A program made the position numbers and the translations under genes. Below, one piece after another: positions 1,440 through 61,301 of a stretch of DNA of 64,000 nt. The stretch's first letter is position 1. Every line of letters starts with the position of its first letter. The stretch covers positions 33,604,328 to 33,668,327 of the forward strand of contig NC_091146.1 in assembly GCF_041381155.1 (NCBI RefSeq), in the 5' to 3' direction. Below the pieces are notes generated by a model, which worked only from the letters and a program-made list of their open reading frames with translations, was not told where the DNA came from and searched no databases. The stretch is from Argopecten irradians. Lineage: Eukaryota; Mollusca; Bivalvia; Pectinida; Pectinidae.

Positions 1440-1784
1440 ATTTGAATTAACACTTTAAAATGGCTGCTAAGCGAGAGACAAGGACAGAGGATATCAATGA
1501 GGAAGTCATTTCCAAACATAATGATCTTGTCTACCATCTGAGTGTACAGATAGTGGAAGATGACTTTCAGTCATTGAAATATCTATTTAAGGGTTGTCCC
1601 CTCACTCCAAAAGACTTAATCAACATTACAACTGTTCACGAGCTATTTGAAAAGCTCGAGAAAAACGAAAACATCAGCATTGGACACTATGAATATTTTA
1701 CCGAACGATTAGAAAAAGTTGATAAAAGTTTGGCTTCTTATGTGAGAAGAGAAGAACAACAGATACAAGATATCCTGAACGCAG
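1440..1784 (+). CDS. Copy A exon: start codon and death effector-like domain
   Basis: The exon follows a clear acceptor (pyrimidine tract then ctgttacag, ending 1439), has about 20 nt of 5' UTR, and starts translation at ATG 1460. It encodes 108 residues and ends in phase 1 at a gtgagc donor (1785). From about residue 17 it shows the six-helix death-fold pattern. The stretch TTVHELFEKLEKNENIS followed by GHYEYFTERL and a hydrophobic last helix resembles DEDs of the FADD/caspase-8 type more than CARDs. Such domains self-associate in signalling assemblies. The exon is nearly identical to the one at 47344 in copy B, with substitutions such as KYLFKGCPLT against IDLFKDCPRA. No frame damage is seen in this exon. 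The ORF runs past the donor into the intron to 1885, which I take as read-through. Confidence 0.8.
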
Positions 1785-4700
1785 GTGAGCTTTGTATCTT
1801 TGTATTTGTAATTATGATTTCCTCAACTGAGTGGGCTCAAATTAATGAATTGTATACCGCTATATTAATATCTGGCTTTACTTAAGTAATAATGTTGTCC
1901 ACCTGTCCATCTCTCTGTTATCTTGTCGGTCATTGTGCTCCGACCACTGTACACCATGATTTGAAAAATTCACTACAATTTCCTATTCCTGGTTGAAAGT
2001 TATGAATTATATAACAGATTGGCAGTTACAGCTATATGGTTAAGGTGTCGGATATAACCATCCTGCATCTACCTGTCCTCTCTGGGCACTTATATAGGCT
2101 CTATGGTAGCAAACCACATGCACTGTCCTTGTACATAAGGGGCATTATTTCATTAAATTTCTATAAGACCTGTTAATGATGGTTTTCATACCTCGGAATA
2201 TGTTATAATGCATGTATATTAAATTAATATTTATGTTTATACACTTGGGGAAATAAGTGTCTTTAGTTTTAACTGTTCTTTTCTTGCAGGCCGGTCGCCA
2301 ACGAAACGATTGCGAACCGGACAGGAGTGTATATCCAACACTCAAACTCAGGTGTGTTATTAGCTCACCTGGCCCGAAGGGCTTATGTCATGGCGTGGCG
2401 TCCGTCGTCCGTCCGTCCGTCAACATTTCCTTTAAAATGCTACTAGTCATAGACTGTCTTCTGCATGGATTCTAACCAAATTTGGCCAGAAACATCCTTG
2501 AGGGAAGGGGAACAGAGTTTGTATAAATTTTGGCTCTGACCAATAGAGGTAAATCCATTAAATCGCTACTTGTCATAGAGTTCTGCAAGGATTTGAACCA
2601 AAGTTTGCCACAAATATCTTTTGGGAAAGGGGAACAGAGTTTGCTTAAATTTCGGCTCTGATCCCCCAGGGGCAGGAGGGAGGGGGGTTCAATAGGGGAA
2701 TAGAGGTAAATCCTTTAAATCGCTACTAGACATAGAGTTCTACATGGATTCTAACCAAATCTGGCCAGAAACATACTTGAGGGAGGGGGGACAGAGTTTG
2801 TATAAATTTCGGCTCTGACCCCCTAGGGGCAGGATGGACAGGGACCAGTTGGGGAAATAGAGGTTATTCCTTTAAATTACTACTAGTCATAGAGTTCTGC
2901 ATGGATTCTAACCAAATTTGACCAGAAACATCCTTGGAGGAAGGGGAACAGAGTTTGTGTAAATTTTGGCACTGACCTCGCAGGGGGAAAAAGGGGGCGG
3001 GGCCCAATAGGGAAATAGAGGTAAATCCTTTAAATTGCTACTAATTATAAAGTTTTACATGGATTGTAAAAAAAATTGGCAAGCAACATCCTTGCAGGAA
3101 GGGGAACAGAGTTTGTATATATTTCGGCTCTACTCCCAGGGGCCAAAAGGGGCGGGGGCCCATTAGGGGAATAGGGGTAAATCCTTTAAATTACTACTAG
3201 TTATAGAGTTCTACATAAATTGTAACCAAATTTGGTCAGAAATATCTTTGGAAGAAGGGGAACAGAGTTTGTTTAAATTTTTACTCTGACCCCCCCGTGG
3301 GCAGGAGGGGAGAGGACTTCTAGAGGAAGTAGAGGTAAATCCTTTACATTGCTACTAGTTATAGAGTTCTGTATGGATTGTAACCATGTTCATTTGTTTT
3401 TCTGAATGCTTCTCGATTTTACCGAGAAGCACAAGACAACATAAATTTGCATAATGCAGTCACGATATGTAAAATCGAGAAGCGTTCTGAGAAAAAACTG
3501 AACATTGCAGTGATGGTTAAAGTAAGTGAGCTACACAATGTTTAAATGGAGTTTCTACAAAGTACGGGACATGACACCTCCAAAGGAGATTGTGGATGAA
3601 CACAGTTATGGGTACTGTTTACCACCACAAGCATAGATTTTGTGTTTTTGGCTTGGTTTTTGAGGTACCCATTAGAGACAACGTTTCGACGGACAGGTAG
3701 ATGTCTACCTAGCATATTTTTCGTAAATTTCCCGATTCATCAAGCCATAACGTCGTCAATACTTGGCCAATTTTGTTCATCAAGCAATCACTGGAAAGAT
3801 AAATTATTTCTCTTTAAGGTAGTAAGATATGGTCAACGGTGCATAGAGCCCATTTATTAAAATAATCACGGTTTTAAAAAAAATAGGTCCGTTTTTTCTC
3901 GACCGCCGAGTTCATACCCTTGATACTATAATACATATATATGTATACTATTGGTTCAAATTTTTCGTGCCAGGTCCCTGTGTCCCAGGGGGGCTGTGGG
4001 AGGGGCCAAAAGGGGTAAAATTGACTAAAAATTTCAAAAATCTTTTTCTCCAATCACAGATTTGGAGGAATCAAATACTCTTCATAGATAGAACATCTTA
4101 AGGTCCTTTACAAAACTTGTGAATTATATGACCCTGGGGTCTCTCGTTTCCCCCTGGGGAAGGGGTTAGATTTACTATATTTTATATAGGGAAACACACA
4201 TTTTTGAGAATTATTTGGTCATTTGTAATAGGAAATGAGTCAAATGTTGTCAGAATTATCAGTATGAGATGGCCATTGAATCATATTAATGTTTCCATGA
4301 CTGACCCACAGTGAAGGGCCTTAGAGGTGGGGTCAAAAGGGGTCGAATAGGCTAAAAACTTAAAAAATCTTCTTCTGAAATTCTGGAAATGGTGTAGAAT
4401 CAAATACTTTTCATAGATTTCAGTTCTTAAGATCCTGGGGAGGGGATCATTGTTTACTCAATTTTTAAAGGAAATGAATCAAACTTGGTTAGAATTATTA
4501 GCCTGAGATAGCATTTTAATATCGTATCCATATTGGTCCTGGCCGACATCTTGGGGCAGAGGGGCGAGGTCAAATAGGCTAAAGCTTCAGAAATCTTAAA
4601 TTCTGGAAATGGTAGAATCAAATACTCTTTATAGATGGAAAGGTCTTCAGGTGTTTTATAAAAAATTGTGAATTACATGACCCTGGGGTCTCACGTTTCC

Positions 4701-7700: not shown

Positions 7701-10700
7701 ATTTTGATCCCCCATTTGTACTATCAATCTAATCTTTACTTTATTTATTCTACATGGCTTTTTCAGTCACCATCCAGCTTACAATGAAGCTCAGGGAATA
7801 TTAAAGATGAGTTTTACATTATGAACTATGAAAACGTAAGACATGCTGAAAAACTTTCATTGGGAACAAACAGTTTTACCCCCAGGTTTGTATGAAAATT
7901 CTGTAGCATTGAATTGTTTTATCATTGGATGGTTTTACTATTTAAAATTGCTTTTGGTCTGGTGGTCTCTGCTAGTGGCTCCGTCCGTCTGTAATCAATT
8001 CGTGTCACCCCTTTTTCTCAGAAAGTATTTAGGACCAGCTTCAAAAAATTTTATATGTACACTTAGCTTCCTTTGATCCCCTATTACAAGACATATGTAG
8101 TGAGGCATTGATAGGCAACAAGAACCATCCAAGATCGACAGTCAGCCATCTCGGGAATTTAATACCTGTACATTGAAACTTGTTATCGCTGTTTCTAAGA
8201 AAATGATCCGTTTCATTTTCATGTTATAGTTTGTTATATACATGTAACTGTTATATATCATATCTGACTTTGGAGGTGGTATTATAAAGCGGATATCACA
8301 ACAGGTACTAAGTGACATCATCTCTTCTTGTATTCAGCATAGCTCTTCATATAACCACTATTGACATTTCTCCCAAAATAAAAATCATATCTAAATGGTG
8401 AAAATTATAAGGACCTTTCGATCGTGAGATACAGCGTATTGCCGGGTTATATTTGCCACTATAAGAATCTAGAACTAGTGGGAAATGATGCACTGTGATT
8501 CACAATCCTCAAAACAATACCAGTAATCATAATTAACATGTAAACTTATCCATGAAACATTTCCATGTTTTCCCTAGGTGGTCATCCCTGTCGCAGCTCT
8601 TCAGACAGTCCAGCTCGAGTCACCTCCCAAAGTAAGTTTCATTCACTGGTGAACAGGGAGGATAAAATAATAAGCAATCATTAGCACTTGTTATTTATTA
8701 ACTAGTTGTTAATTTTAATGTGACTATCGTTTTGCCAGTACATGACTATCATATTGCAGGATCCAGTTTAATAAATATGTAACTAGTTATGTAGCAAGAT
8801 ATTGCAATAACGAAATATTGGCAGTAATCATAAAAACAAGGATGTTATAACTCATCAAACAAGTTACCTTGGGTATATGATTATAGATATTATCTGTCAA
8901 ATATCTATGATTATAAAAAACTCAGGAAAGATTCTGACAATACACAAAACTGATTGATGGAATAGTTATAGTCATCCACTATTGACAAACAATTGACAAC
9001 AAGTAAACATTTTCATCATAAAATACTCACGGTGAAGTTTAATTATCACCTATTTTACAGATTCAGATCGCTTTTCGTCCGTGGTCCGTCCGTCCGTCCG
9101 TCCTTCCGTCCGTTAACAATTTTGTTACTGCTATTTCTCAGAAAGTACTGAAAGGGTCTTTCTCAAATTTCATTAGGGCCCTAGTTGTGCATATTGCATT
9201 TTGGTACCGATCACTTTACAAGATGGCCGACTGGAAGCCATCTTGGATTTTGACAATGAAGTTTGTTACCGCTATTTCTCAGAAAGTACTGAAGGGATCT
9301 CACTCAAATTTTACATGTAGATTTCCCTAGGAGTCTTGTTGTGCGTATTGCATTTTGGGACCAATCGATTAACAAGATGGCCGACAGGTCGTCATCTGGG
9401 ATTTTGACAATTGAAGTTTGTTACCACTATTTCTCAAAAAGTACTGAAGGGATCTGTCTCACATTTTATGTGCATGGTCCCCTAGGTCCCTGGTTATGCA
9501 TATTGCATTTTGGAACCAATCGGTGAACAAGATGGCCGACAGGAAGCTATCTTGAACTTTGACAATGAAGTTTGTTACCGCTATTTCTCAGAAAGTACTG
9601 AAGGGATCTGTCTCAAATTGCATTTGCACGTTCCCCTAGGGGTCTAGTTGTGCATATTGTATTTTTAGACTGATTGATGAACAAGATGGCCGATAGGCCA
9701 CCATTTTGGATTTTGATAGTTGTAGCTTGATACCACTATTGCTCAGAAAGTACTGAAGTGATCTGTCTCAAATTTTATATGTAAGTTCCACTAGGACCCT
9801 TTTTTGTGCATATTGCATTTTCAGACTGATCAGTCAAAAGATGGCCGAACAGGTAGCCATCTTGAATTTTGATAATTGAAGTTTGTTACTCAGAAAGTAC
9901 TCAAAGGATCTTTCTCAAATTTCATATATGGTAATATATACACCTGTATGAAAAGTTTGAAAAAGCAGAGAAAAGATCCCTCTTTTGTTTGTCAGACATA
10001 GATCATTCTTTGGTGGGCACCAAGATCCCTCTGGTATTTCAGTACAATATTACATGTATGAAAAAAATAAGTTTGTATTTAGACAGGTATATTTATTTAA
10101 GGTTTCTGATATTTGTTATTTAACTGAATTATACTTAAGTAAAATAATTTTTTTTAATTTCACAGATATCCATCCAGACCTTTTACCCCAAATAGGTGAG
10201 TCTTCTCAACAATACACATTTGTATTTACAATATGATAGTAAATGTACAGACTGAAGATTTAAAGATATAAACTATTTTTACAGTAATAAAAATGTTTCT
10301 TGACTCATTACTATGATTTCATATTATGACAATTTCAGTAACGCACTAACTTTTATCAGCTGTTTTGTCTTTTTGTATTATTAGAAACAACTGTTAATAG
10401 GATCAAGACAGAAAAAGAAAAAAATTCATACAGACCAGAGCGTACCATGATGCTCAAGACAAGCTCCGAATGAACAGAGTCTTTAGTGATCAAGGGGAAC
10501 ACGCGGGGACGGGAAAACGTCTACCGCATTCCAACTTTTAAATTGGCTATTGGAGGAGGAGCAGTGCAGAAAACCACTTCAGCTTCATGAAATTAGGGAT
10601 CTGAAGTTACTGGCTCCACATTCTGATCTTGTTTGTATTATTGATGACATATTTGGTGAGAGAGATATTGGTAGATCGGACGTGCAAGAGTGGAACAAGA

Positions 10701-14850: not shown

Positions 14851-14859
14851 TCGTATGAA

Positions 14860-28510: not shown

Positions 28511-28667
28511 GCATTAAACTACCTTCCTATGGCATCAATGGTCTATATAGATGCCAGAGCTTTTCAGACAATCACCTCATAATGAGCTAGCAAGCATTAT
28601 GACGATTGTCTGCAAAGCTCTGGCATCTATATAGACCATAGATGTCATAGGAAGATAGTCTAATGCT
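28511..28667. repeat. Long inverted repeat abutting the satellite, about 63-bp arms
   Basis: The left arm runs from GCATTAAACTACCTTCC to CAGACAATC, the right from GATTGTCTGC to TAGTCTAATGC, with a loop of about 30 bp. The core GGTCTATATAGATGCCAGAG pairs perfectly with its mirror. The first satellite unit begins at the next base. Confidence 0.75.
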
Positions 28668-47668: not shown

Positions 47669-50600
47669 GTAAGCTTTGCATCACACAAATTTTAAAATTA
47701 TGATTTCTTCATCTAATTGGCTGACATTAATTAATTGTATACCTCAATAATAATTTCTTGTGTCCTAAAGTAATAATGTTGTCCGCCTGTCCAACTCCCT
47801 GTCTATCTTGTCGGTCCATGTAACTGTCCAAATCACTGTCCCTGCACATTATAATATATAACATATCAGGGACTTTTATACATAATTTCTAACCCTTATA
47901 CAAAGTTCATAGACAGGATTTCTCATATTTCATTAATTTTACATTGATTGTTTCCATATCTCGGCATATATATATATACATATATTATATTAATATTAAT
48001 GTATACACACATGGGCAAATAATTGACTATAATAGTTTTAACTCTGCCTTTCTTGTAGGTCTATCACCAGCGAAACGATTGCGAACGGAGCAGGAGTGTA
48101 TCCAGCAGTTAAATTCAGGTGTGTTATTAGGCTTTAGCATACTTACAGTACTGCAAAGCCTTATGCTATGGAAATTGACAACAATCCTAGCAATCTGATT
48201 GGTTCAATTATTCCAACAATTTACTAACACCATCTGATGACACAATCTTCCTACAAAATATTCCCGCCATCATTCAATATAATTTTCTGTGTGAATTCAA
48301 ATTGCTACAACACGAATAGTTCAATCACAGAAAACCATTCAAACTGAAAATATTGGACACTGACATATTCTATGTCAAAGATGATAAGAAATACATGTAC
48401 CTATAGTATACGTAATAAGAATATATTCTCAAGACGTGGAGAAAAATTGACAGAGTTGCTTCCCTTTGTTTCTCTCGGTCAGTGCACATTTGAAGGTCAC
48501 GATTGAGAAACACTAACAAGCTTCCAAATTTGGAAATTCATATCAATTACTATATTAGTTATATTGAAACTGAATGTTATCAGCTGAAAAATACTTAATA
48601 CTAGCATTGGTCGTATGGCCTGAGACAACCAATATATTGAATAGATCAACTACTGCTTTTCAAATTGATCTCTTGATCAGCAGAGACTTCATCAGCAGAG
48701 ACTAGACCAGTAGAGATTTGATCAGTAAAGCTTTGACCAGTAGAGACTTGTTCAGCAGAAGCAGAGACTTGATCAGAATAGACTTGACCAGCAGTGACTT
48801 GATCAGTAGAGATTTGACCAGTAGAGACTTGATCAGCAGAAGCAGGCTTGACCAGCAGAACAAGAGACTTGATCACCAGACTTTATCAGTAGAGCTTTGA
48901 CCATTAGAGACTTGTCCAGCAGAGACTTGATCAGAAGAGATTTGATCAGAATAGACTTGACCAGAAGTAACTTGATCAGTAGAGATTTGACCAGCAGAGA
49001 CTTGACCAGCAGACTTGGTCAGTAGAGACTTGACCAGCAGAGACTCGATCGGTAGAGACTTGACCAGCAGAAGCAGAGACTTGATGAGTAGAGACTTGAC
49101 CAGCAGAAGCAGAGACTTGACCAGCAGAAGTAGAGACTTGACCAGTAGATACTTGATCGGCACAAGCAGAGACTTAACCAGCAGAACAAGTAACTTGATC
49201 AGCATTCTTGACCAGAGATACTTGACCAGCAGAGATTTGACCTGCACAGACTTGATCAGCAGATACTTGATCAGTAAAGACTTGACCAGCAGATACTTGA
49301 TCAGTAGAGGCTTGATCTACAGAAACCTGATCAGCATACTTGACCAGAGAGACTTGACCAGTATACTTGATCAGCAGAGACTTAATCTCCCCGCAGAAAC
49401 TTAATCAACTAAGACCAGAGAGACTTGACCAGTAGAGACTTGACCAAGGCTTTATCAACAGAAACTTGATTAGCATACTTGACCAGAGAGACTTGACCAG
49501 TAGAGACTTGACCAGTAGAAACTTTATCAGCTGAGTCTTGATCAGCAGAGACTTCACCATCAGAGGCATCACCAATAGAAAATTGATCGCCACACTTGAC
49601 CAGAAACACTTAACCAGCAGTGACTTGACCAGTAGACTCTATCAGCAGAGACTAGATCAGCAGAGACTTGACCAGTGGAAACTTGATCATGGGAGACTTG
49701 ATCAACAGAAACTTGACCAACAGAGACTTTACCAGCATACTTGATGAGAGAGACTTGATCAGCAGGAACTTAATCAGCAGAAACTTGGTCAAAAGGGACC
49801 TGACCCGCAGACTTGATCAATAAACAGAGACTTAATCAGCAGACTTGGTAAGTAGAACTTTGATCAGCAGAGACCTGACCAGAGAAACTTGATCAGTAGA
49901 AACTTGATAAATAGGGACTTGACCCGCAGACTTGTTCAGCAGAAGCTTGACCTATATAAAATTGATCAGCATACTTGACCAGAGAGATCTGACCAGCAGA
50001 AACTTGATCAATAAACAGAGACTTAATCAGCAGACTTGGTCAGTAGAACTTTGATCAGCAGAGACCTGACCAGAGAAACTTGATCAGTAGAAACTTGATA
50101 AATAGGGACTTGACCCGCAGACTTGTTCAGCAGAAGCTTGACCTTCAGAAAACTTGATCATCATAAACTTGAGCAATAGGGACTTGACCCACAAACTTGA
50201 TCGGCAGAGGCTTGGCCTAAAAGAGACTTGATCAGCATACTTGACCAGAGAGACCTAACAAGCAGAGACTTTATCAATCAGCAGAGACTTAATCAGCAGA
50301 CTTGGTCAATAGGTACTTGACTAGCAGAGACTTGATCAGCAGAGACTTGAACAATAGATACTAGATTGGTAGAGGCTTGGTCACTCAGTAGACACTTAAT
50401 CAGATGAGCCTTTATCACACAGCAAACTTAATCAGCAGAGACAGCAAACTTGATCAGTAAGGACTTGACCAGCAGAGGATTGACCAACAGAGACTTAGTC
50501 AGTAGACCTGATCACTTCACAGAGACTTGATCAGCAGAGACTAGACCACCAGAAACTTGATCAGCATACTTGACCAGAGAGACTTGACCAGCAGAAACTT

Positions 50601-53600
50601 GATCTGTAGGGACTTGACAAGCAGAGTCTTGACCAACAGAAACTTGATCAGCATACTTGACCGGAGAGACTTTGCCAGAAGATACTTGATCAGCAGAGAC
50701 TTGACCAGAGAGACTTTATGTGCAGAGACTTTATCACTCAGCAGCAACTTAATCAGACGAGACTTGATCAACAGAAATTTGATCAGCATACTTGACCAGT
50801 AGAAACTTTATCACTCAGCAGAGAGACCTATTCAACAGAGACTTGATCTGTAGAGACTTGATCAGTTGAGAATTGACCTGCAGAGACTTGATCACTCAGC
50901 AGAGACATGTTCAGCAAAGACTCCATCAGTATAGACTTGACAAGTAGAGACTTGTTCAGTACAGACTTAATCGCTTAACAGAAACTTGATCAGCATACTT
51001 GACCAGCAGAGACTTCATCACTCAGCAGAGACTTGATCTACAGAGACTTGACCAGTAAAGACTTGATCAGTACAGACTTAATCAGTAGACTTGACCTGCA
51101 GAGTCTTGATCAGCAGAGACTTATTCACTCAGCAGAGACTTGATCAGGTAAAGACTTGACCAACAGAAACTTGGTCAGCATACTTGATCAGCAGAGACTT
51201 GGTCAGTAGGAACTTGACCACAGAAACTTCATCAGCATACTTGACCAGCAGAGACTTGATCAGCTGAGACTTGACCAGAGAGACTTGGTCAACATATTTG
51301 ATCACTGAGACTTGACCAGCAGAGACTTGACCGGTAGAGACTTGATTAGCAGAGACTTGACCAACAGAAACTTTATCAGCATACTTGACCAGCAGAGTCT
51401 TTATCACTCAGCAGAGACTTGTTTAGCAGAGACTCGATCTGTAGATACTTAATCAACAAAGAGTTGACCAGTAGAAACTTGATCAGCTGAGACTTGATCA
51501 GCAGAGACTTGATCAGCAGAGACCTTTTCTCAAGGTACTTCGGCTTTCCTCCAACAACAAACCTGGCACGTCCTTATATGACCTTGGCTATTAATAGGAC
51601 GTTAAACTAATAAAACCAAACCAACCTTATTTATTATAATTTCTATGTCTGTAAAACTGGAGAGGACTATTATAGTGTTAGTGTCAGTCTGTCTGTCTCT
51701 CTGTCCGTCCGCCGGTCTTTCTTTCTGGATGATGGTTTTCAGATTATAACTTCTGAATTTAGTGATAAATTTTGTTGAAACGTCATGCAATGGTATTTTA
51801 TGAGGTAACACATCTCTGGGTTGATGTTGGATTCAAAAGGTCAACTACTAATGTCACTTACTAAGAATAGATTAAGGTCAATGTAATAACAGGTGGGGAC
51901 CAGTAGGGGTCGTATAATTTGTTTGTACTGGATAAAGCTTTACTGACTTATTGATATATACTAGCTAGATAGGCTCAACTATTCTCATGAGCTAGTACAT
52001 TGTCATGTTCAGTTTGATATAGAATATCGACCTGATGTTGTTTTTGTAAGAAACGCCAAGTCAATATTTCTTTTGTGACATCACAACCAGGCTGATATTG
52101 TATTTGTCCATTGTCTAAACATTTCACTCTGCATGGTGGTGTACTATGTACTATGGCCATCGGTTATTCTTCTGTAATTAACATGAACATAAGATAATCT
52201 TTTTGACACTTTTCAAAGAATCTACATATCAAATATAAGTTTAAGGATTTGTAATTTGGTCGCTGTGGTGGTATGTCGCCCTTAAAGAATCTAAAATAAG
52301 GATATAAGGCTTTGCACTTGGCCATTGTATAGGTCCATACTGTAATTTATGAAATATATATAATTGGTTGGTCTAAATACGAAACATGTTCATGTACAAT
52401 AATTCTATGAATCTGAGAATCATAACATGTTTCTTGTTTTCTAGGTGGTCCTCCTGTTTCCGATCAAACTGCAGGTAGTTCAAGTCACACTCCCAAAGTA
52501 AGTTTCACAGGTGAAAATTTGGATATAATAAAGCGATATTGAGCATGCATTATTAACTAGTAGTTAATGTAATGTAATGTAATGTTACTAGTCATATAGC
52601 AAGATATTGTAATACAGAAATAATGTAATGTAATGTTACTAGTCATAATGGCAAGATATTGTAATACAGAAATAATGTAATATAACTAGTCATATGGCTA
52701 GATATTGTAATACAGAAATAATGTAATGTAACTAGTCATATGGCAGGATATTGTAATACATAAACAATGTAATGTAATGTTACTAGTCATATGGCAAGAT
52801 ATTGTAATACAGAAATAATGTAATGTAACTAGTCATATGGCTAGATATTGTAATACAGAAATATATGCATTAATCATAAAAACAAGGGATTTTTAGCTCA
52901 CCAGTCCAGAAGGACAAGTGTGGTTATATCTTGATGCAGCATCCATCGTCTATCAGTCCGTCCGCCAACATTTCCTTTAAATTACTATTAGGCTTAAATC
53001 TACATTTTGTTTGTTTGTTTGTTTGATTAATTAACATTCTTATTAACAGCCAGGGTCATATAAGAACTGCCTCCCATGTATGTGGTGTGTAGCGTGTATA
53101 TTGTATGAAGTGCATGTTTTGGGAGGCTGCAGTATTGTGTTGTGTCTTCTTGTAAAGTGGAACTCGTACCCTTTTTATATCACTGAAGCATGCTGAAGAC
53201 ACCGAGCAATACACCAAACCCGGTCACATTATACTGACAACGGGCGAACCAGTTGTCCTATTTTCTGTATGCTGAGCGCTATAATTAGCAGTTCTTCATG
53301 GATTTGCCCAGGGGCAGGAGTGGTGGGGCCCAATAGGGATAATAGAGGTGAATTTTTGAAATTGCTACTAGTCATATAGTTCTACATGGATTGTATTACT
53401 AGTTTGGCCAGGAACATGCTTGGGGAAGGGGAACAGTGTTTGTATAAATCTTGGCTTTGACCACCTAGTTAGTTTGGCCATGCAGGAACAAGCTTGGGGG
53501 AAGGGGAACAGTGTTTATATAAATCTTGACTCTGACCACCCTGGGGCAGGAAACATGGAGTCAAATTGTGGAATTAAAGGTAAATTATTCTGCTAATAGT

Positions 53601-55956
53601 CATAGAGTTCTGCATGGATTGTAGCCAAATTTGGCCAAAAACATCTTTGTTGGAAAGGGAACAGTTGTGTAAATTTTGGCCCTGGGCTAGTAGTAGTTAG
53701 GTCTGTTAAAAATTACTTAAAAAGAAAATCTTAAATAGATTATCTTACATGAGTGGCTATATAATATGAAAATTATCAAATGAGTTCACTAATTTGATAT
53801 GCCACGAGCCTATAGGCTAGTGACATCAAAATTATACACGAGTTTGATAAATTTCATATTACATAGTCACGTGTGTAATATTCTATTAACACATTACTTT
53901 TATTAAGAGAAAAATAAGTAAAGCTTTTAGTTTTGTCTCTATATAAAACAGAAGAAATCCGGCTCGGATGTGACTTTTCGTCTACTGAGACATCCATGCG
54001 ACGTCGACGTCATATAAATATTATGACGTCAAAACTACCTGTGACGTCACAATAGTGTTATTACACATGTGCCTTACGATATTTATGACATGGCCGTATG
54101 GCATGGCTGGACGGGTCAGTTATGTGATAAAATCTAATAGGCTATACTTTTACATGGTGGCTGAGTGGTTAAGATGTCTTGACATAATACCACAAGCCCT
54201 CCACGTTGCACCTCTGGGTCACGAGTTTTAATCCCATGTTTGGCATTTGTCAGGTACTGACTGCTAGTCCGTGGTTTTTCTCTGTGTACGATGGCTTACC
54301 TCCACAAACAAAGCTGGCACATCCTGACCCTGGCTGTTAATACGGCGTTTAGCTAATAAAATCAAAACTCTGTAGTTATGGCTTTGCTTAGTACCAGGTG
54401 GGTGATGAGGTGCTCTGAGCCTCTCGTTCATTTTAACTGCCCTGGACGCATATTTGGTTGAATACGGTAGATATCTTTGGTATTGAAACAGAGTACTCTA
54501 AACAATATCGTAGACAAGACAAGTTTTTTGAAAAAATAAGAGAGTTTATTATACCTCATGTTTATAACAGTATCTGTGATGAGTTGAAACGCATTACACG
54601 ACAGGGGAAAAAAACATAGTATTTCTCTGGGGCGCGGGCCCCTATGGTGACCGCCCGTCTTTCACACGGAGTTTATTTCCCCTTCCGATTGTACAAACAA
54701 TGACAGCACGGACGAAGCGTAAAATGTCATTTTTTTCTCATCGCAAATTTAAGTAAATTTAACCCAGAGTAGCAAATCGTGAATTTTCGGTATAATAAAC
54801 AATTTGTGTCCCCGGTGGCAGTGGAATATGAAGGTTTATTTACTCTCAGATGCAATATTTCCCTCTGGTAAGCCCTCAGTAAATATTACACCTTCAGGTA
54901 AAGAAACCTTCATATCACACTGTCACCGGGGACATAAATGCATAATATATAAATGAATTATTCTTATGTGAAATGTTTTTTTTTCTTTATTTATTTTACA
55001 GAGATCCATTCTGACCTTTTACCTATGATAGGTGAGTCTTCTCAGCTTATCCTTTGAGGTATTTACTATATGTTCATAAAGCTTATTCATTGATGTATTT
55101 ACTATAATATGTTAGTACAGTGTGAGGATGTAAAGATATTAACAGTATTAGGAGAGTAATAAAAGTAACCTTGACTCAACAATACAATTTTATATGTGAT
55201 AATTTCAGTATTTTTATGAGCTGTTTTGTCATTTTTGTTCTATTATTAGAAACAACTATTAGCATGATCAAGACAGAAAAAGAAAAAGAAATACAATTCA
55301 TGCCGACCAAAGCTTACCATGATGCTCAAGAGAAGCTCCGAAAGAACAGAGTTTTAGTGATCAAGGGGAACACGGGGACGGCAAAACGTCTACTGCATTT
55401 CAACTTGATACATTGTTGCTAATGGAGGAGGAGCAGCAGTGCAGAACGCCACTTCAGCTTCATAAAATTGAGAAATTGGATTTACTGGCTCCAAATTCTG
55501 ATCTTGCTTGTATTATTGATGACATATTTGGAGAGAGAGACATTGGTAGACTTGATGTACAAGAGTGGAACAAAAGGCTTAAAAATGTAGAAACACTTTT
55601 TGTTTGTAAACAAAACCAGACAAATTATTTAATTATCACAATTCGAAATGAAATATTTAATGTTTTGGCAAAAAACTCTCGAGGGACAGTTTTTACGAAA
55701 GACAACATTATTGATCTAAGCTCAAATGAGTACAAAATCAAGGGTGAAAAACAAAATCTATTAGCAATGTACACACCAACAAATCTGACATGGACAGAGG
55801 AAGAAGAGAAAAAAATTGTAGGTTATGCACCTCATATTGGATTCCCTCAATGTTGTCAGCTTTTCTATAATTCTGCTGAATTGCAGGAAAAGCGAGCATA
55901 TTTTTTTGAGAAACCGGTTCAATTTTTCATAGAAGCTCTGTCAAAACTACCAGAAT
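47324..55956 (+). CDS. Copy B: DED - STAND NTPase gene, truncated by an inversion junction
   Basis: Same architecture as copy A. Exons I can place: 47324-47668 (DED), 48059-48118, 52445-52510, 55002-55031 and 55250-55956. The two linker exons found in A at 6121 and 7767 were not found between 48118 and 52445. That space is held by a 15-bp minisatellite and repeats. All exons up to the NTPase join in phase 1. In the last exon, one base is missing from the Walker A codons, and the sequence ends at ...ALSKLPE, where opposite-strand sequence of copy C begins. No ankyrin part exists on this strand. It is probably a broken paralogue, or one arm of a misjoined assembly. Confidence 0.68.
48059..48118 (+). 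CDS. Copy B exon: basic linker
   Basis: A 60-nt phase 1-1 exon after tttcttgtag and before gtgtgt. It reads GLSPAKRLRTEQECIQQLNS, and the AKRLR patch is shared with copy A. It is fully in frame with the DED exon, unlike the A version. Confidence 0.72.
48650..51528. repeat. 15-bp minisatellite, roughly 190 units, in an intron of copy B
   Basis: The unit GACTTGATCAGCAGA, or GACTTGACCAGTAGA, repeats for 2.9 kb with substitutions and some units of other length. Because 15 is divisible by 3 and the unit lacks stops in several frames, both strands show long low-complexity ORFs (DLTSR/DLISR pentapeptides on +, VSAGQ/VSTDQ on -). Dense TGATCA sites. Not present in A or C. Confidence 0.93.
51529..51615 (+). 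mobile_element. SINE 3' tail
   Basis: CAAGGTACTTCGGCTTTCCT, CCTGGCACGTCCTTATATGA, CTATTAATAGGACGTTAAAC then TAATAAAACC: the same tail as 54290-54368. It sits exactly at the end of the minisatellite. Confidence 0.6.
51640..51890 (+). repeat. Relative of the 20595-21640 repeat
   Basis: CTGTCTGTCTCTCTGTCCGT and TTGGATTCAAAAGGTCAACT match the family. Confidence 0.5.
52445..52510 (+). CDS. Copy B linker exon
   Basis: A 66-nt exon after gttttctag. In phase 1 it reads GGPPVSDQTAGSSSHTPK then VSFTG, a flexible Gly/Ser/Pro linker, and ends at the donor gtgaaa. The upstream gtaagt inside it is a stronger-looking donor but would end the exon in phase 0 and open the next micro-exon onto a stop. I therefore choose the later site. 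Confidence 0.6.
52550..52866. repeat. Tandem repeat, about 45-60-bp unit, about 6 copies
   Basis: AATGTAATGTAACTAGTCAT then ATGGCAAGATATTGTAATAC recurs. Copies A (8700-8820) and C (58985-59110) have single or few diverged versions, so the array expanded in copy B. Confidence 0.65.
52890..53690 (+). repeat. 'agctcacc' repeat with nested SINE-like insertion (about 53005-53310)
   Basis: Starts TTTTTAGCTCACCAGTCCAG; later units match 2420-3386 (GGGGAACAGTGTTTGTATAA). The middle carries TTCTTATTAACAGCCAGGGT and ATACTGACAACGGGCGAACC, a different repeat inserted into it. Confidence 0.55.
53734..53886. mobile_element. Hairpin MITE, about 153 bp, near-perfect palindrome
   Basis: The left TTACATGAGTGGCTATATAA...GCCTATAGG mirrors the right CCTATAGG...TTACATAGTCACGTGTGTAA. 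The outer ends AATAGATTAT / ATATTCTATT also pair. Inserted in an intron of copy B. Confidence 0.7.
54153..54368 (+). mobile_element. Full-length tRNA-derived SINE (bivalve V-SINE type)
   Basis: Head GGTGGCTGAGTGGTTAAGA (box A) and GGGTCACGAGTTTTAATCCC (box B, one change from GTTCGAATCC). Body ACTGACTGCTAGTCCGTGG and TTTTTCTCTGTGTACGATGG. Tail CTGGCTGTTAATACGGCGTT then AATAAAA. Order and tail fit the tRNA-headed SINEs widespread in bivalves. It is the best copy in the window. Confidence 0.72.
54802..54939. mobile_element. Hairpin MITE, 138 bp, about 65-bp arms
   Basis: ATTTGTGTCCCCGGTGGCAG...ATATGAAGGTTT pairs with AAACCTTCATAT...TGTCACCGGGGACATAAAT. Sits just upstream of the copy B micro-exon. 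Confidence 0.7.
55002..55031 (+). CDS. Copy B 30-nt micro-exon
   Basis: Between ttttacag and gtgagt, coding EIHSDLLPMIG in phase 1. It is the counterpart of 10166-10195 (A) and 57557-57586 (C). Confidence 0.62.
55250..55956 (+). CDS. Copy B NTPase exon, cut at the inversion junction
   Basis: Follows tattattag and opens with ETTISMIKTEKEKE and AYHDAQEKLRKNRVLVIKGN, so the lead-in to the P-loop is in frame. At the Walker A motif one G is missing compared with copy C, and the following dozen codons also differ. The frame is regained at about 55413, giving EKLDLLAPNSDLACIIDDIF (Walker B) and ERDIGRLDVQEWNKRL, then IITIRNEIFNVLAKNSRGTV and IGFPQCCQLFYNSAELQEK. Homology to A stops after CCAGAAT (55956). 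The next bases belong to copy C in the opposite orientation and supply a chance stop at 55986. Confidence 0.72.
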
Positions 55957-57367
55957 ATCTAGATCTCCCTCACTCAATGACACTATAAACCTCATTGTAA
56001 ATCAATCTCCACCAATCTGTGTCCTCGTCAGGTTTCACACCTTTTTTCAATAGATACAAAGCTAATTCAGCTGATCCAGAATCACATGCTTTATTCAATA
56101 AGTTGAGTTTATTACCTTTTTCTTGTCAAAACTTGTCAAATTCTCAACAAATACACGAACTTTCCACACATCTAGAGAACCAATCACAGTAAGATAAACG
56201 ATACGTCTCCACCACACTCTCAAACTCTCGGAGCAAACGTTCACACGACAAATCATTGTAATGACCAGGTGATATGACAACCATGTCTGTAGATGTTTTT
56301 ACAGTCCTTAGATAACTGAGTGCTATTTCTTGGACAATGTTTTATGTAGCCGACAGGTGTTTTCTTTCCATACAACAGAGCTACTGTGACATATATAGAA
56401 TCATGATGAAATCTGTACACTTCCTCCACCAGACCTATATTTCTCCTTCCTTACCAAAAATCCTAATAGCTTATCTAAACTCTCTCTTACAAAATCTACT
56501 TTCTCCTCATACTCCCTTTTTTGTCCTTTCCTTCACTATTAACCAGTTTAATCCTAAATGCTTGTTCTAACAATGTTTTTGTTTACTTTATCAGCATTTG
56601 GGTCAAGATCATTTACCTTTATTTCCCCATCATTGAGGAAGAGAAACAGAATGGCAGAACATTCTGGTAAATTTGACAGAGCTTGTATAAAAAAATTTAA
56701 CTGGTTTCTCGAAAAAATTCTGCTCGTTTTTTTCTGTAATTCAGCGGAATTATAGAAAAGCTGACAACATTGAGGGAATCCAATATGAGTTGCATAACCT
56801 ACAATTTTTTCCTCTTCTTCCTCTGTCCATGTCAGATTTGTTGGCGTGTACATTGCTAATAGTTTTTGTTTTTCACCCTTGATTTTGTACTTATTTGAGC
56901 TCAGATCAATAATGTTGTCTTCCGTAAAAAAACTGTCCCTAGAGATTTTTCTTCCAAAACATTAAATATTTCATTTCGAATTGTGATAATCAGGATATTT
57001 GTCTGGTTTTGTTTATTGGCAAAAAGTGTTTCTACATTTTTCAGCCTCTTGTTCCACTCCTTGCACTTCCGATCTACCAATATCTCAAATATCTCACCAA
57101 ATATGTCATCAATAATACAAACAAGATCAGAATGTGGAGCCAGTAACTTCAGATCCCTAATTTCATGAAGCTGAAGTGGTTTTCTACACTGCTCCTCCTC
57201 CAGTAGCCAATTTAAAAGTTGGAATGCGGTAGACGTTTTCCCGTCCCCCGTGTTCCCCTTGATCACTAAGACTCTGTTCATTCGGAGCTTCTCTTGAGCA
57301 TCATGGTACGCTCTGGTCTGTATGAATTTTTTGTCTTTTTCTGTCTTGACCCTATTAACAGTTGTGT
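55955..57367 (-). CDS. Copy C NTPase exon with the first ankyrin unit
   Basis: Opens after tttgtattattag with DTTVNRVKTEKDKKFIQTRA, then QEKLRMNRVLVIKGNTGDGK, an intact Walker A, followed by TSTAFQLLNWLLEEEQ. Walker B is LVCIIDDIFG. Between Walker B and WNKRLKNVETLF the sequence is a few codons longer than in A (EIFEILVDRKCKE). The sensor ILIITIRNEIF follows. Extra T residues after LGTVF shift the frame. The next open part runs 56853-56554 (MYTPTNLTWTEEEE to NDGEIKVNDLDPNADK), with a compensated shift around the FF-rich segment. Further one-base differences interrupt 56554-56100. The ankyrin start NKACDSGSAELALYLLKKG is recognisable near 56060-56100. The copy ends at the junction after GGGAGATCTAGATAT. 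Confidence 0.72.
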
Positions 57368-60300
57368 CTAATAATACAAAAAGACAAAACAGCTGATAAA
57401 AGTTAGTGTGTTACTGAAATTGTCATAATATGAAATCATAGTAATGAGTCGAGAAACATTTTTATTACTGTAAAAATAGTTTATATCTTTAAATCTTCAG
57501 TCTGTACATTTACTATCATATTGTAAATACAAATGTGTATAGTTGAGAAGACTCACCTATTTGGGGTAAAAGGTCGGAATGGATATCTGTGAAATTAAAA
57601 AAAAAATTTACTTAAGTATAATTCAGTTATATAACAAATATCAGAAACCTTAAATAAACATACCTGTCTAAATACAAACTTATTTTTTTCATACATGTAA
57701 TATTGTACTGAAATACCAGAGGGATCTTGGTGCCCACCAAAGAATGATCTATGTCTGACAAACAAAAGAGGGATCTTTTTCCTGCTTTTCAAACTTTTCA
57801 TACAGCTGTATATATTACTACATATGAAATTTGAGAAAGATCCTTTGAGTACTTTCTGAGTAACAAACTTCAATTATCAAAATCCAAGATGGCTACCTGT
57901 CGGCCATCTTTTTGACTGATCAGTCCGAAAATGCAATATGCACAAATAAGGTCCTAGGGGAACTTACATATAAAATTTGAGACAGATCACTTCAGTACTT
58001 TTCTGAGCAATAGTGGTATCGAGCTACAACTATCAAAATCCAAAATTGGTGGCCTATCGGCCATCTTGTTCATCAATCAGTCCAACAATATGCACAACTA
58101 GACCCCTAGGGGAACCTGCAAATGCAATTTGAGACAGATCCCTTCAGTACTTTCTGAGAAATAGTGGTAACAAACTTCATTGTCAAAATCCAAGATAGCT
58201 TCCTGTCGGCCATCTTGTTCACCGATCGGTTCCAAAATGCAATATCCATAACCAGGGACCTAGGGTACCATGCACATAAAATGTGAGACAGATCCCTTCA
58301 ATACTTTTTGAGAAATAGTGGTAACACAATCTTCAATTGTCAAAATCCAAGATGGCGTCCTGTCGGCCATCTTGTTGACCGATTGGTCCCAAAATGTAAT
58401 ATGCACAACAAGACACTAGAGAAACTTACATGTAAAATTTAAGAGAGATCCCTCTAGTACTTTCTGAGAAATAGCGGTAACAAACTTCATTGTCAAAATC
58501 CAAGATGGCTTCCTGTCGGCCATCTTGTAAACTGATCGGTAACAAAATGCAATATGCATAACCAGGGACCTAGGGGAACCTGCACATGAAATTTGAGACA
58601 GATCCCTTCAGTACATTCTGAGAAATAGCGGTAACAAACTTCAATTGTCAAAATCCAAGATGGCGACCTGTCGGCCATCTTGTTAATCGATTGGTCCCAA
58701 AATGCAATACGCACAACAAGACTCCTAGGGGAATCTACATGTAAAAATTTGAGTGAGATCCCTTCAGTACTTTCTGAGAAATAGCGGTAACAAACTTCAT
58801 TGTCAAAATCCAAGATGGCTTCCAGTCGGGCCATCTTGTAAAGTGATCGGTACCAAAAATGCAATATGCACAACTAGGGCCCTAATGAAATACCCTTTCA
58901 GTACTTTCTGAGAAATAGCAGTAACAAAATTGTTAACGGACGGACGGAAGGACGGACGGACCACGGACCACGGACCACGGACCACGGATTACTGCCAATA
59001 TTTCTTTATTGCAATATCTTGCTACATAACTAGTTACATATTTATTAAACTGGATCCTGCAATATGATAGTCATGTACTGGCAAAATGATAGCCACATTA
59101 AATTAGCTACTAGTTAATAACTAGCATGCTCAATATTGCTTTATTTTATCCTACTTTTCACCTGTGAAACTTACTTTGGGAGTGACTTGAGCTGGCTGCT
59201 GAACGAGCTCCCCGACAGGAGGACCACCTAGAAAACAAGAAATGTATGATAATTACATTGTATTATGATTACTGGTATTGTTATGAGGATGGTGAATCAA
59301 TGCATCATTCCATAGTTTAGATTCTTCAAGGGCAATATAACACCATAGCGACCACATCGAAGGTCCTTAATTTTCACATTAGATATGTTTTTATTTGACA
59401 AATGTCAAAGGGGTTATCTGATGAGCATGCTGATTACAAGAAGAATGATGGCCATAGTACCTGGTTATGCTAAATCACATCAAGTCAATATGATATACCG
59501 TTACTGTATATCAAACTTAACATGAAAATGAAACGGATCATTTTCTAAGAAGCAGCGATAACAAGTTTCAAGTACGGGTATTAAATTCCCAGATGGCTGA
59601 CTGTCGATCATCTTGTTGCCTATCAATGCCTCACTACAATATGTCTTGTAATTAGGGATCAAAGGAAGCTAAGTGTACATATAAAATTTGAAGCTGGTCC
59701 CTAAGTACTTTCTGAGAAAAAGGGGTGACACGAATTGATTACAGACGGACGGAGCCACTAGCACAGACCACAGACCAAAAGCAATTTAAATAGTAAACCA
59801 TCCAATGATAAACAATTCAATGCTACATAATTTTCATACAAACCTGGTGGTAAAACTGTTTGTTCCCCAATGGAAAGATTTTCAGCATGTCCTACTTTCA
59901 TAGTCTTAATGTTAATTTCATCTTTATATTCCCTGAGATCATTGTAGTTGATGGTGACTGAAACATGTAATAAATCATAATTAGATTGATATACACTGGG
60001 ATATCAAATGTTGCTGTTATACTGATTTCAATAGATAACAAACTGAGTCTATGCTGTTAAGACTTTACGTATTTAGATTATTTTGATTGTGGTCAAATTA
60101 TGTAACATGTCATAAAACATGCTGGATCCCATGACTAATTGTTGATATATTAATTGATTCAATAAAGAATTTTAAAGGATATGCAAATATTTATTTCGTT
60201 CATGACTCAGAATTTTTTTTTTTTTTTTTGTAATTTCTATTTAGATATGATTAAATATGAACAAGAAACCAGAGGAATATTGGCGCTCACAAAATAATGA

Positions 60301-61301
60301 TCTATGGCTGACAATGCACAGGAAGAAACTGGATTAGGGTGACTGCAGTTACCCAGATCCAACATGGCGATGGGGTAAATATACAAGGAAAGCATACTGT
60401 GATAGGACTTACACTTAAAATTTTGCTAATATAGTGTTACAAGACACAATCTACGGTGGTTATTCTATAGAAACTTAAAATACCTGTATATTCTGTGAAC
60501 AGGCAGTACGATTTCCTGATTTTTGCATCAACGCCATGTTAATTGTGGGTAATTGTAGTTACCCTAATCCCGTTCCCCAATGTGACAATTGAAAGAGGGA
60601 TCTCCTCTCTGCTTTTCAAACCTCAACTATCAATATCAAAGATGGCGGCCTGTCGGTCATCTTATGATCAATAGGTCCCAAAATGCATTATGCAAAGCTA
60701 GGTTCTGAGAAATATCGGTAACAATTGACCTTCAACTATAGAAATCCAAGAAGTTAGCCTTCCCAAAATGGAATATGCATAATAACGGCACTTAGGACAC
60801 CTACATATGAAATTCTTTTTCAGACATATTCTTTCAGCGTGGCAGCCATCTTGTCGACCGATTAGTCCCAAAATGCAATATGCATAACTAAGGCCCTTGG
60901 GAAACCTACAGTTTCGAGAATGATCCTTCAGTATTTTATGGGAATGAGAACAAGAGTTATTAACGAACGGACCGACGGACAGACAAGAATTGTTAATGGA
61001 CGGACTGACCACAGACGAAAGGCAATTTGATCTGATGATGGTGTGCTAAAACCCAAATTGACATCAATCCACAACGAATTTGAGAATTTAATATTAATAT
61101 AATCTACGCAGAAAAATGATTCCGTACACTGATTGACAGTTGTGGGATTGGCCACTGCTCCAGAAGAGATCTCCGGGATGGCTATAGCTCCTGTGTTCTC
61201 GCTTGGAGTACAACTTTCAGTCTGACCAGGGACGGCAGAAGAGATCAAAGACTCCATCAGCTGAGTGACCCTCTCAGCTCCAACTGGGTTGATGTTACTA
61301 T
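55955..61301 (-). CDS. Copy C: STAND NTPase - ankyrin gene on the minus strand, 5' end outside the window
   Basis: Exons placed, from the 5' side: 61301-61128, 59957-59844, 59227-59162, 57586-57557 and 57367-55955. Introns are collinear with copy A, including repeat arrays and a tRNA-like element further upstream (62997-63077). The DED and KRLR exons would lie beyond 64,000. This copy keeps all four linker exons open and the Walker A motif intact, so its 5' half is the best preserved of the three. The NTPase exon then shows several homopolymer-length shifts and stops after one ankyrin unit, where it meets copy B tail to tail. Copy C therefore has no natural C-terminus. Confidence 0.68.
57557..57586 (-). 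CDS. Copy C 30-nt micro-exon
   Basis: Reads DIHSDLLPQIG in phase 1 between tttcacag and gtgagt on the minus strand. It is conserved with A and B. Confidence 0.62.
   Translation of the reverse strand: MSIPTFYPK
57830..58990 (-). repeat. Tandem 'agaaagtactgaaggg' array in copy C
   Basis: Mirror of 9080-9950, with more units (about 8). Ends (its 5' side) with a GTCCGTCC run and a triple CCGTGGTCCGTGGT. The ORFs at 58493-58985 are repeat translations. Confidence 0.72.
59162..59227 (-). CDS. Copy C linker exon (66 nt)
   Basis: After ttttctag, in phase 1 it reads GGPPVGELVQQPAQVTPK then VSFTG, and ends at gtgaaa. Length and phase equal those of copy B. The Gly/Pro/Gln-rich sequence suggests a disordered linker. 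Confidence 0.6.
59520..59790 (-). repeat. Single unit of the same repeat in copy C intron
   Basis: GACAGTCAGCCATCTGGGAA and AGAAAGTACTTAGGGACCAG on the minus strand. Aligns with 7980-8200 in copy A. Confidence 0.5.
59844..59957 (-). CDS. Copy C linker exon (114 nt)
   Basis: After atgtttcag, in phase 1 it reads VTINYNDLREYKDEINIKTM, then KVGHAENLSIGEQTVLPPG, and ends at gtttgt. It is open throughout and phase 1-1. I recognise no domain. The homologous exon in A is frame-shifted, and B appears to lack it. Confidence 0.58.
60600..61020 (-). repeat. Repeat units before the copy C linker exon
   Basis: Mirror of about 6640-6965. Contains GTCCGTCGGTCCGTTCG and AAGATGGCTGCCACG motifs. Confidence 0.5.
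61128..61301 (-). CDS. Copy C linker exon (about 174 nt)
   Basis: After atattacag, in phase 1 it reads DSNINPVGAERVTQLMESLI, then SSAVPGQTESCTPSENTGAI, then AIPEISSGAVANPTTVNQ: a Ser/Thr/Pro-rich, probably disordered linker. The 3' end is uncertain. A donor after ...AATCAGT at 61128 keeps phase 1, and a second GT lies two bases earlier. The acceptor and first codons are tandemly duplicated just upstream (61301-61370), giving two possible acceptors about 45 bp apart. Confidence 0.55.

What the first reader, a model, noticed from the sequence alone, without database searches (positions are those of the whole stretch)
1440..61301. Cluster of three DED - STAND NTPase - ankyrin genes in 62 kb
The sequence shows a DED-like exon, a P-loop NTPase with GNTGDGKT and CIIDDIFG motifs, and ankyrin repeats in one gene, in three recent copies. 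STAND NTPases with death-fold and repeat domains are known sensors or switches in animal and bacterial immunity. A DED plus an nSTAND3-like NTPase plus ankyrins fits an invertebrate NLR-like design. That this is an expanding recognition family is inference.
Basis: partly seen in the sequence, partly recalled or inferred. Interest (0 to 1): 0.8.

Follow-up and report, generated by a model that had tools for sequence, protein, structure and literature searches.

The report
Shared sensor, swappable DED or HEPN heads
The window holds one complete-looking and two cut-off copies of an animal immune-receptor-like gene family in which a common NTPase-ankyrin body carries either a death-effector head or, in sister genes, a predicted RNA-cutting head; what it does in the animal is untested.

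Summary
The domains are real: Pfam finds DED, nSTAND3 NTPase and ankyrin repeats. "Three genes" is only partly right. Copy 1 has all parts but broken frames; copies 2 and 3 are cut off and meet tail to tail at 55952-55956; copy 3 has no DED exon. The copies carry an excess of 1-base indels that looks more like residual assembly error than pseudogene decay.

On contig C13 beyond 32 Mb, 11 of 14 DED exons have a same-strand nSTAND3 exon within 20 kb downstream; random placement gives 0.44. One paralogue reads as an 876-aa DED-nSTAND3-Ank protein.

The main result lies outside the window: seven C13 sister genes have a HEPN_DZIP3 exon in place of the DED exon. Of 37 nSTAND3 places, 12 have DED, 11 HEPN, none both, 14 neither. 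NTPase halves sort by head (dS 0.45-0.52 between types); WHD-ankyrin tails do not (0.09-0.10), which implies tail exchange, though the tail tree alone does not prove it (p-AU 0.136).

Best reading: NLR-like sensors with a common tail pool wired to two outputs. Expression and function are untested.

The parts
1460..1784 (+). copy 1 exon 1: death effector domain, phase-1 donor
   Evidence: Pfam DED 2.3e-9; 13 genomic rows at 80% identity or more over full or nearly full length, itself included; donor GT
2290..2351 (+). copy 1 exon 2: short linker exon, PTKRLRT-like basic stretch; 62 nt against 60 in copy 2 and paralogue p3322
   Evidence: aligned to copy 2 exon 2, AG/GT borders
8578..8631 (+). 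copy 1 exon 3: linker (assigned by position and borders; no significant DNA match to copy 2 exon 3)
   Evidence: AG/GT borders read from the sequence
10166..10195 (+). copy 1 exon 4: 30-nt linker exon, shared by DED-type and HEPN-type genes
10385..13521 (+). copy 1 exon 5: nSTAND3 NTPase, WHD-like region and ankyrin repeats; frame broken several times
11733..12818 (+). copy 1: tandem array of the ankyrin-like unit (TRF period 185, 6.0 copies; about 62 aa per unit in open paralogues)
   Evidence: TRF; paralogues read
47344..47668 (+). copy 2 exon 1: death effector domain
   Evidence: Pfam DED 2.6e-8, just under the cut-off; 91% identical to copy 1
48059..48118 (+). copy 2 exon 2: linker with PAKRLRTE (resembles a short nuclear localisation signal; likeness recalled, untested)
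   Evidence: 96.7% identical to p3322 exon 2
52445..52497 (+). copy 2 exon 3: linker, 53 nt (51 in four paralogues)
55002..55031 (+). copy 2 exon 4
55250..55956 (+). copy 2 exon 5: nSTAND3, cut off at the junction before the WHD and ankyrin part
   Evidence: Pfam nSTAND3 6.9e-17; homology to p3322 stops at 55956
55952..55956 (.). tail-to-tail junction of copies 2 and 3, 5-base overlap; real inverted duplication or misassembly
57557..57586 (-). copy 3 exon 4
55952..57367 (-). copy 3 exon 5: nSTAND3, WHD-like part and start of the ankyrin-like unit; cut off at the junction; no DED exon found near by
   Evidence: Pfam nSTAND3 1.4e-26; 97.3% to C13:34.05 Mb; nearest minus-strand DED hit upstream is 185 kb away

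Best explanation
The window carries degraded or badly assembled members of a recently expanded family of (presumably cytosolic) STAND receptors. Shown by sequence: a DED, short linkers, an nSTAND3 NTPase, a winged-helix-like part and ankyrin repeats are encoded by five (or four) exons in order; sister genes carry a HEPN_DZIP3 exon instead of the DED exons ahead of the same last two exons; NTPase halves sort by head while WHD-ankyrin tails are mixed and closer at silent sites. Inferred: the ankyrin tail senses a ligand (pathogen molecule or damage); the ADP-bound NTPase is released, exchanges nucleotide and oligomerises; in DED-type genes the clustered DEDs recruit the FADD-like and DED-caspase-like products that the genome appears to encode, giving cell death or NF-kB-type signalling; in HEPN-type genes the clustered HEPN domains become active RNases. 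Tail exchange by gene conversion or unequal recombination would let the same sensor pool feed either output.
For: Domain hits. DED-nSTAND3 order and strand: 11 of 14 C13 DED exons beyond 32 Mb (fragments and broken ones included) have an NTPase within 20 kb downstream, 0 upstream; random mean 0.44, maximum 4 in 20,000 placements. Spliced frame open through all domains to the expected stop in p3267 (876 aa); open from DED into nSTAND3 in p3322 (691 aa) and p3401 (519 aa), which stop earlier; broken in p3426: 3 of 4 joined in frame. HEPN heads: of 37 nSTAND3 places 12 have DED, 11 HEPN, 0 both, 14 neither; label shuffling expects 3.6 with both and gives none in 0.5% (related rows, so not independent). 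The HEPN exon has a phase-1 donor candidate like the DED exon in 3 of 3 (a phase-2 candidate lies 13 bases further), and with it HEPN-exon 4-exon 5 is open past the NTPase in 2 of 3 tried. HEPN RNase-type motif Rx4-5H in 8 of 8 read. Head tree: C13 HEPN-linked NTPases plus C405 form one clade, 99/98. Silent divergence between types: 0.45-0.52 in codons 1-280, 0.09-0.10 in 281-465; outgroups C2 and C1 show 1.2-1.3 and about 1.0, so the tail is not simply slow; Fisher p 2e-9 to 3e-8 in three chosen pairs. dN/dS: NTPase 0.31-0.35, DED 0.30, tail 0.63-1.30. Possible partners: two DED exons followed by a caspase match on C16, DED then Death on C5, DED then a caspase match on C1.
Against: No transcript, protein, ligand or phenotype was examined. 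The tail-only tree is mostly unresolved and does not reject HEPN monophyly (p-AU 0.136). Of 15 exon-5 rows read to the first stop, one ends at the expected stop, 4 run to the end of the stretch held and 10 stop earlier; whether those breaks are real is unknown, so the number of working genes is unknown. The AlphaFold model of the DED was poor (pLDDT 58.8), and a DED profile found no convincing solved structure (best E 0.29). 14 of 37 nSTAND3 places have neither head within 20 kb, 6 of them among the 24 on C13. On wider trees the head label needs 3 changes (30 rows) or 2 (22 rows), so the swap on C13 is not the only one. High tail dN/dS may be relaxed constraint rather than selection, and the middle part reaches 0.54 within the HEPN type.
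Confidence: 0.6

Rival explanations
1. The window copies are dead: ordinary pseudogenes left by duplication, with no function; living genes are elsewhere on C13.
For: All three window copies are frame-broken, and two are cut off at an inverted junction. A paralogue with a complete frame exists at C13:32.67 Mb.
Against: The indel excess is far above that of ordinary decay: copy 3 has 16 indels against 15 mismatches in the exon, and 30 gap openings against 34 mismatches over 2.9 kb including intron. Neutral decay usually gives several substitutions per indel (recalled).
Confidence: 0.4
2. The structure of the window is partly an assembly artefact: unpolished duplicated sequence, and a false tail-to-tail join of two paralogues or haplotypes.
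For: One-base indels dominate and are mostly insertions in copy 3; the junction has a 5-base overlap and truncates both copies at one point; a satellite array begins at 63.5 kb and fills the next 7 kb. Copies 1 and 3 both match the 34.05-Mb locus best among those fetched.
Against: Inverted duplications with short microhomology also arise naturally. Copy 2 is closest to another locus (33.22 Mb) than copies 1 and 3, and copies 1 and 3 are only 93% identical to each other, so the three are not one sequence repeated.
Confidence: 0.45
3. DED and NTPase-ankyrin are separate neighbouring genes, not one protein.
For: 7-18 kb separate the DED and NTPase exons. No transcript is available.
Against: Linker exons with GT/AG borders and joined open frames in 3 of 4 paralogues, phase-1 donors on the DED exon and a phase-1 candidate on the HEPN exon, and no upstream pairs.
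Confidence: 0.07
4. The shared tails reflect strong constraint on the tail, not exchange of DNA.
For: The tail tree does not reject a HEPN clade (p-AU 0.136).
Against: Between types, silent sites are about 5-fold closer in the tail than in the head, while outgroup distances are similar; dN/dS is higher, not lower, in the tail.
Confidence: 0.1
5. The family is not an immune sensor but a scaffold or regulator in another process.
For: No induction or ligand data exist; ankyrin and DED proteins have non-immune roles too (general knowledge).
Against: Local expansion, high tail dN/dS and effector-head swapping resemble NLR and bacterial Avs families.
Confidence: 0.2

Closest known systems
Pearl oyster (Pinctada fucata) NACHT proteins with N-terminal DZIP3-like HEPN or death domain (PMC9646362, found passages read)
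   Same: Bivalve expansion concentrated on one chromosome scaffold; central STAND-class NTPase; alternative HEPN or death-fold heads; repeat tails; Rx4-6H motif mostly kept
   Different: Central domain there is NACHT (PF05729), not nSTAND3; tails LRR, TPR or WD40; in the passages read, no DED head and no tail exchange between head types
Bacterial Avs5 (SIR2-nSTAND3-repeats; PMC12931631, found passages read)
   Same: nSTAND3 (PF20720) between an N-terminal effector and a C-terminal repeat sensor
   Different: SIR2 effector, TPR, Sel1 or PPR repeats, prokaryotic; our NTPase hit no model named Avs in PADLOC at E 0.1 or better; the best hit is the candidate PDC-S73 at 6.7e-9
DZIP3/hRUL138 HEPN family (PMC3710099, table row and passages read)
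   Same: HEPN exon of the sister genes; the row lists fusions to ankyrin, CARD, NACHT, DEATH and LRR, with expansions in Nematostella, oyster and Capsaspora
   Different: DED and nSTAND3 are not in that row
DED-TRADD-N and related lineage-specific expansions in Crassostrea (PMC8195603, found passages read)
   Same: Constant death-fold head with variable effector or repeat domains, STAND NTPases and ankyrins among partners
   Different: Centred on TRADD-N, which no Pfam scan of our pieces listed and for which no separate search was run
Animal NLRs (NACHT-LRR)
   Same: Tripartite head, STAND NTPase, repeat tail
   Different: No NACHT hit and no LRR hit among the pieces scanned

Membership tests
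STAND / nSTAND3 NTPases | Significant match to the nSTAND3 profile over the curated cut-off | tested here: met
   1.4e-26 (copy 3), 6.9e-17 (copy 2); 22 of 22 scored genome rows over the cut-off, of 122 first-look candidates. Copy 1's broken P-loop part was not scanned with Pfam
STAND / nSTAND3 NTPases | Walker A, Walker B with DD, sensor-1 arginine, GxP, WHD histidine (definitions recalled from the STAND literature) | tested here: met
   GNTGDGKTS, C[IV]IDDIFG, ITIRNEIF, HIGFPQCC, YRFDHDSIYVTVALLY read in open paralogues; by eye, no structure solved
DED family | Significant match to Pfam DED | tested here: met
   copy 1 over the cut-off, copy 2 just under with E 2.6e-8
DED family | Six-helix death fold | tested here: inconclusive
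   AlphaFold pLDDT 58.8 from two rows; DED profile against PDB best E 0.29
Ankyrin repeat proteins | Ank profiles over cut-off | tested here: met
   copy 1 Ank_2 3.8e-11; paralogue p3268 (the locus called p3267) 4.8e-17
NLR (NACHT-LRR) | NACHT domain and LRR tail | tested here: not met
   neither listed for the pieces scanned
Avs5 | SIR2-type effector with nSTAND3 and Avs-type repeat tail | tested here: not met
   head is DED or HEPN; no model named Avs hit in PADLOC
HEPN_DZIP3 (sister genes only) | Pfam match and Rx4-6H motif | tested here: met
   2.3e-27 and 1.4e-26 for two exons; motif in 8 of 8 read
Functional immune receptor | Ligand-triggered oligomerisation and signalling | not testable with these tools
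   no expression or biochemical data

The most novel reading that the evidence does not exclude
A two-output receptor system: one continually exchanged pool of WHD-ankyrin sensor tails is shared by DED-headed (death or NF-kB signalling) and HEPN-headed (RNase) nSTAND3 receptors in the same cluster, so that any new recognition specificity can be wired to either cell death or RNA destruction by recombination near codon 257 of one exon.
Probability: 0.35. Interest if true: 0.75.

Novelty: new variant of a known kind. Interest (0 to 1): 0.55.

Why it matters
Head swapping between effectors is known in bacterial and fungal STAND defence (general knowledge) and in animal NACHT families (PMC9646362, passages read). 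An animal nSTAND3 family with a visible head swap and tail exchange in progress would show how sensor specificity moves between outputs, and it can be tested with polished long reads, cDNA and simple biochemistry. It would also give an animal counterpart to the Avs-type nSTAND3 architecture. The term nSTAND3 was in only 2 papers of the library searched: the Avs5 paper (passages read) and one on a mosquito virus (listing only).

Tried and rejected
AlphaFold of the DED from the two window copies gave pLDDT 58.8 and was not used for a fold search; the second structure job was not used. A DED profile and the NTPase fragment against PDB sequences gave nothing convincing. Upstream stretches of two genes without a head (34.05 and 34.53 Mb) were fetched to look for a third head: exon 3- and exon 4-like matches in the first, no DED or HEPN DNA match in either; their ORFs were listed but not scanned with Pfam. 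A 30-row tree had long branches from broken rows; it was repeated with 22 rows (dropped: win1, win2, win3, p3706, C3, p2529, p3390, C123), then split into head and tail with 20 rows (two C16 rows also dropped). Two papers that hold the terms DZIP3, HEPN and STAND (coral PMC10236652, Aplysia PMC9334734) were seen as listings only.
Full report
What is in the window. A six-frame survey and Pfam scan find two DED exons (1460-1784 and 47344-47668, + strand), nSTAND3 NTPase exons in all three copies (copies 2 and 3 by Pfam at 6.9e-17 and 1.4e-26; copy 1, frame-broken, by its match in pieces to copy 3), and ankyrin repeats in copy 1. Copy 1 spans 1460-13521. Copy 2 runs from 47344 to 55956 and copy 3, on the other strand, from at least 57586 to 55952, where the two abut with a 5-base overlap. 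So one copy has all parts, one lacks the WHD and ankyrin part, and one lacks the DED and most of the ankyrin part. The nearest minus-strand DED hit upstream of copy 3 is 185 kb away. The intron homology of copy 3 to copy 1 runs to about 63.48 kb, just before a satellite array with a period of about 55 bases that begins at 63.5 kb and continues through the 7 kb fetched beyond the window.

Quality of the copies. Over the first 1250 bases of the NTPase exon, compared with the best-matching row, copy 3 has 15 mismatches and 16 indels (14 frameshifting), copy 1 41 and 10 (7), and copy 2, over 704 bases, 4 and 3 (3). Of 18 paralogue rows compared in the same way, 17 have 0-2 frameshifting indels; L017 has 16 because its best partner is copy 3, and p3267 and L016 are one locus. 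With about as many indels as substitutions in copy 3, residual read error in a duplicated stretch is likelier than normal decay, but reads are needed. Of 15 exon-5 rows read to the first stop, one ends at the expected stop, 4 reach the end of the stretch held and 10 stop earlier, several near the same G-rich run in the ankyrin part. The number of intact genes cannot be stated from this assembly.

The family. The window lies at C13:33604328-33668327 of an 846-Mb assembly. The DED exon finds 34 rows, 13 of them 80% identical or more over full or nearly full length, 12 of these on C13. The NTPase exon finds 44 rows; 19 on C13 (window copy 3 among them) and 1 on C405 are 68-100% identical without internal stop. 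I merged split rows by hand: 31 of the 34 DED rows and 35 of the 44 NTPase rows were kept, and 2 places were added, giving 37 NTPase places. Of 14 DED exons on C13 beyond 32 Mb, 11 have a same-strand NTPase exon 7-18 kb downstream, none has one within 20 kb upstream, and 20,000 random placements gave a mean of 0.44 and a maximum of 4. Four paralogues were read exon by exon with GT/AG borders; three splice in frame from DED into nSTAND3 (p3267 876 aa to the expected stop; p3322 691 aa and p3401 519 aa, which stop earlier), and p3426 does not, because its DED exon is one base longer. The last exon of the 876-aa frame has nSTAND3 and ankyrin repeats by Pfam. The 60-nt exon 2 was found in copy 1 (62 nt), copy 2 and p3322 only. 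It codes for a short basic stretch that recalls a nuclear localisation signal; this was not tested.

The second head. A genome-wide HEPN_DZIP3 search gives 23 rows, 22 places after merging one split exon. Eleven lie on the same strand and 2.4-9.4 kb upstream of an nSTAND3 exon. Of the 37 nSTAND3 places, 12 have DED, 11 HEPN, 0 both and 14 neither within 20 kb; on C13 alone 11, 7, 0 and 6 of 24. Label shuffling expects 3.6 with both and gives none in 0.5% of shuffles; related rows are not independent. In four HEPN loci read in full between HEPN exon and exon 5, exon 4 is present (EIHPDLKPMIG against EIHSDLLPMIG) while no match to exons 1-3 of the DED type was found (DNA matches of exon 4). The HEPN exon has a phase-1 donor candidate, like the DED exon, in 3 of 3 read; a phase-2 candidate lies 13 bases further. 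With the phase-1 donor the spliced frame is open past the NTPase in two of three tried: at least 878 aa to the end of the stretch, and 871 aa ending in the ankyrin part; the third breaks at 237 aa. All eight HEPN exons read keep an Rx4H or Rx5H motif, which the literature treats as a putative RNase site (PMC3710099 and PMC9646362, passages read). A HEPN exon with a DED fragment 0.4 kb behind it at C13:30.12 Mb may be a relic with both. A Death-domain match 1.3 kb upstream of an nSTAND3 place on C9 hints at a third head.

Heads and tails have different histories. In the head part (codons 1-256 of exon 5), HEPN-linked C13 genes plus C405 form one clade (99/98), and DED versus HEPN needs one change on C13; over the wider trees it needs 3 (30 rows) or 2 (22 rows). 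Mean silent divergence between types is 0.454 (codons 1-170) and 0.517 (171-280), but 0.086 (281-392) and 0.097 (393-465), as low as among DED-type genes; 5 DED-linked and 5 HEPN-side rows were used (C405 counted with HEPN), 25 pairs that are not independent. The outgroups C2 and C1 show 1.23 and 1.30 in the head and 0.97 and 1.02 in the tail, so the tail is not intrinsically slow. In one pair (p3357 and p3219) differing codons are dense up to 256 and then absent until 307; in another (p3427 and p2510) a few lie between 259 and 283. Fisher tests in three chosen pairs give p from 2e-9 to 3e-8. Against this, the tail-only protein tree is poorly resolved and does not reject a HEPN clade (p-AU 0.136), although the head labels are hardly clustered on it (9 changes, shuffled mean 10.4, as low in 40 of 200; 3 changes of DED and HEPN on C13). 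dN/dS is 0.31-0.35 in the NTPase, 0.32-0.54 in the middle, 0.30 in the DED (55 pairs of 11 exons), and 0.63-1.30 in the tail. This fits a diversifying or relaxed sensor part; it does not distinguish the two. The number of ankyrin-like units also varies between paralogues, with 6.0 copies of a 185-base period in copy 1.

Likely mechanism. The architecture is that of STAND switches: an N-terminal head, an NTPase with Walker A, Walker B, a sensor-1 arginine and a GxP motif (definitions recalled), a WHD-like region with a conserved histidine, and a repeat tail. By analogy with NLRs and with bacterial Avs5, whose central domain is also nSTAND3 (PMC12931631, passages read), ligand binding to the tail should release the NTPase and cluster the heads. 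For the DED type, the genome holds a pair of DED exons 14 kb ahead of a caspase match on C16, a DED followed by a Death domain on C5 and a DED followed by a caspase match on C1; the two caspase matches span introns read through with stops. These are plausible caspase-8-like and FADD-like partners. For the HEPN type the output would be RNA cleavage. None of these steps was shown.

Known or new. Bivalve NACHT families with HEPN or death-domain heads are described (PMC9646362), as are HEPN fusions to many repeat and death-fold domains (PMC3710099) and DED-containing expansions in Crassostrea (PMC8195603); found passages of each were read. Searches of the open-access library for nSTAND3 (2 of 2 listed), nSTAND3 with death effector domain and ankyrin (20 of 65 listed), novel STAND NTPase with bivalve and ankyrin (20 of 129), DZIP3 with HEPN and STAND (4 of 5), NOD-like receptor terms with bivalve (12 of 34) and DED with STAND, ankyrin and mollusc terms (10 of 236) showed no listed title that describes a DED-nSTAND3-ankyrin family or tail exchange between DED and HEPN heads. 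Only listings and the passages named were read, so earlier description is possible. The finding is a new variant of a known kind.

Noticed in passing
28667-30990: Tandem array, period 58, 40 copies, 95% matches.
   Followed up: no
63514-63984 and L059: Satellite with a period of about 55 bases that continues through the 7 kb fetched right of the window.
   Followed up: partly
48672-51523: About 2.9-kb degenerate array (CTTGATCAGCAGAGA-like unit) in the intron between exons 2 and 3 of copy 2; also present in paralogue loci.
   Followed up: partly
5800-5880: tRNA-like stretch resembling a SINE (by eye; no tRNA scan was run).
   Followed up: no
L071 (C13:30119200-30120700): HEPN_DZIP3 exon with a DED fragment (83% over 54 aa, one TAG) about 0.4 kb downstream on the same strand; possible relic that carried both heads.
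   Followed up: partly
L023 (C13:25285796-25289251): nSTAND3 frame that runs on into a second HEPN_DZIP3 domain, besides the HEPN exon upstream of it: a possible HEPN-nSTAND3-HEPN fusion in place of the ankyrin tail.
   Followed up: partly
G000:C9:30204617-30206128: Death-domain match (3.7e-4) 1.3 kb upstream of an nSTAND3-Ank exon: possible third head type.
   Followed up: no
L010, L014, L030: More distant nSTAND3-ankyrin genes on other chromosomes with open frames of 724-930 aa.
   Followed up: no
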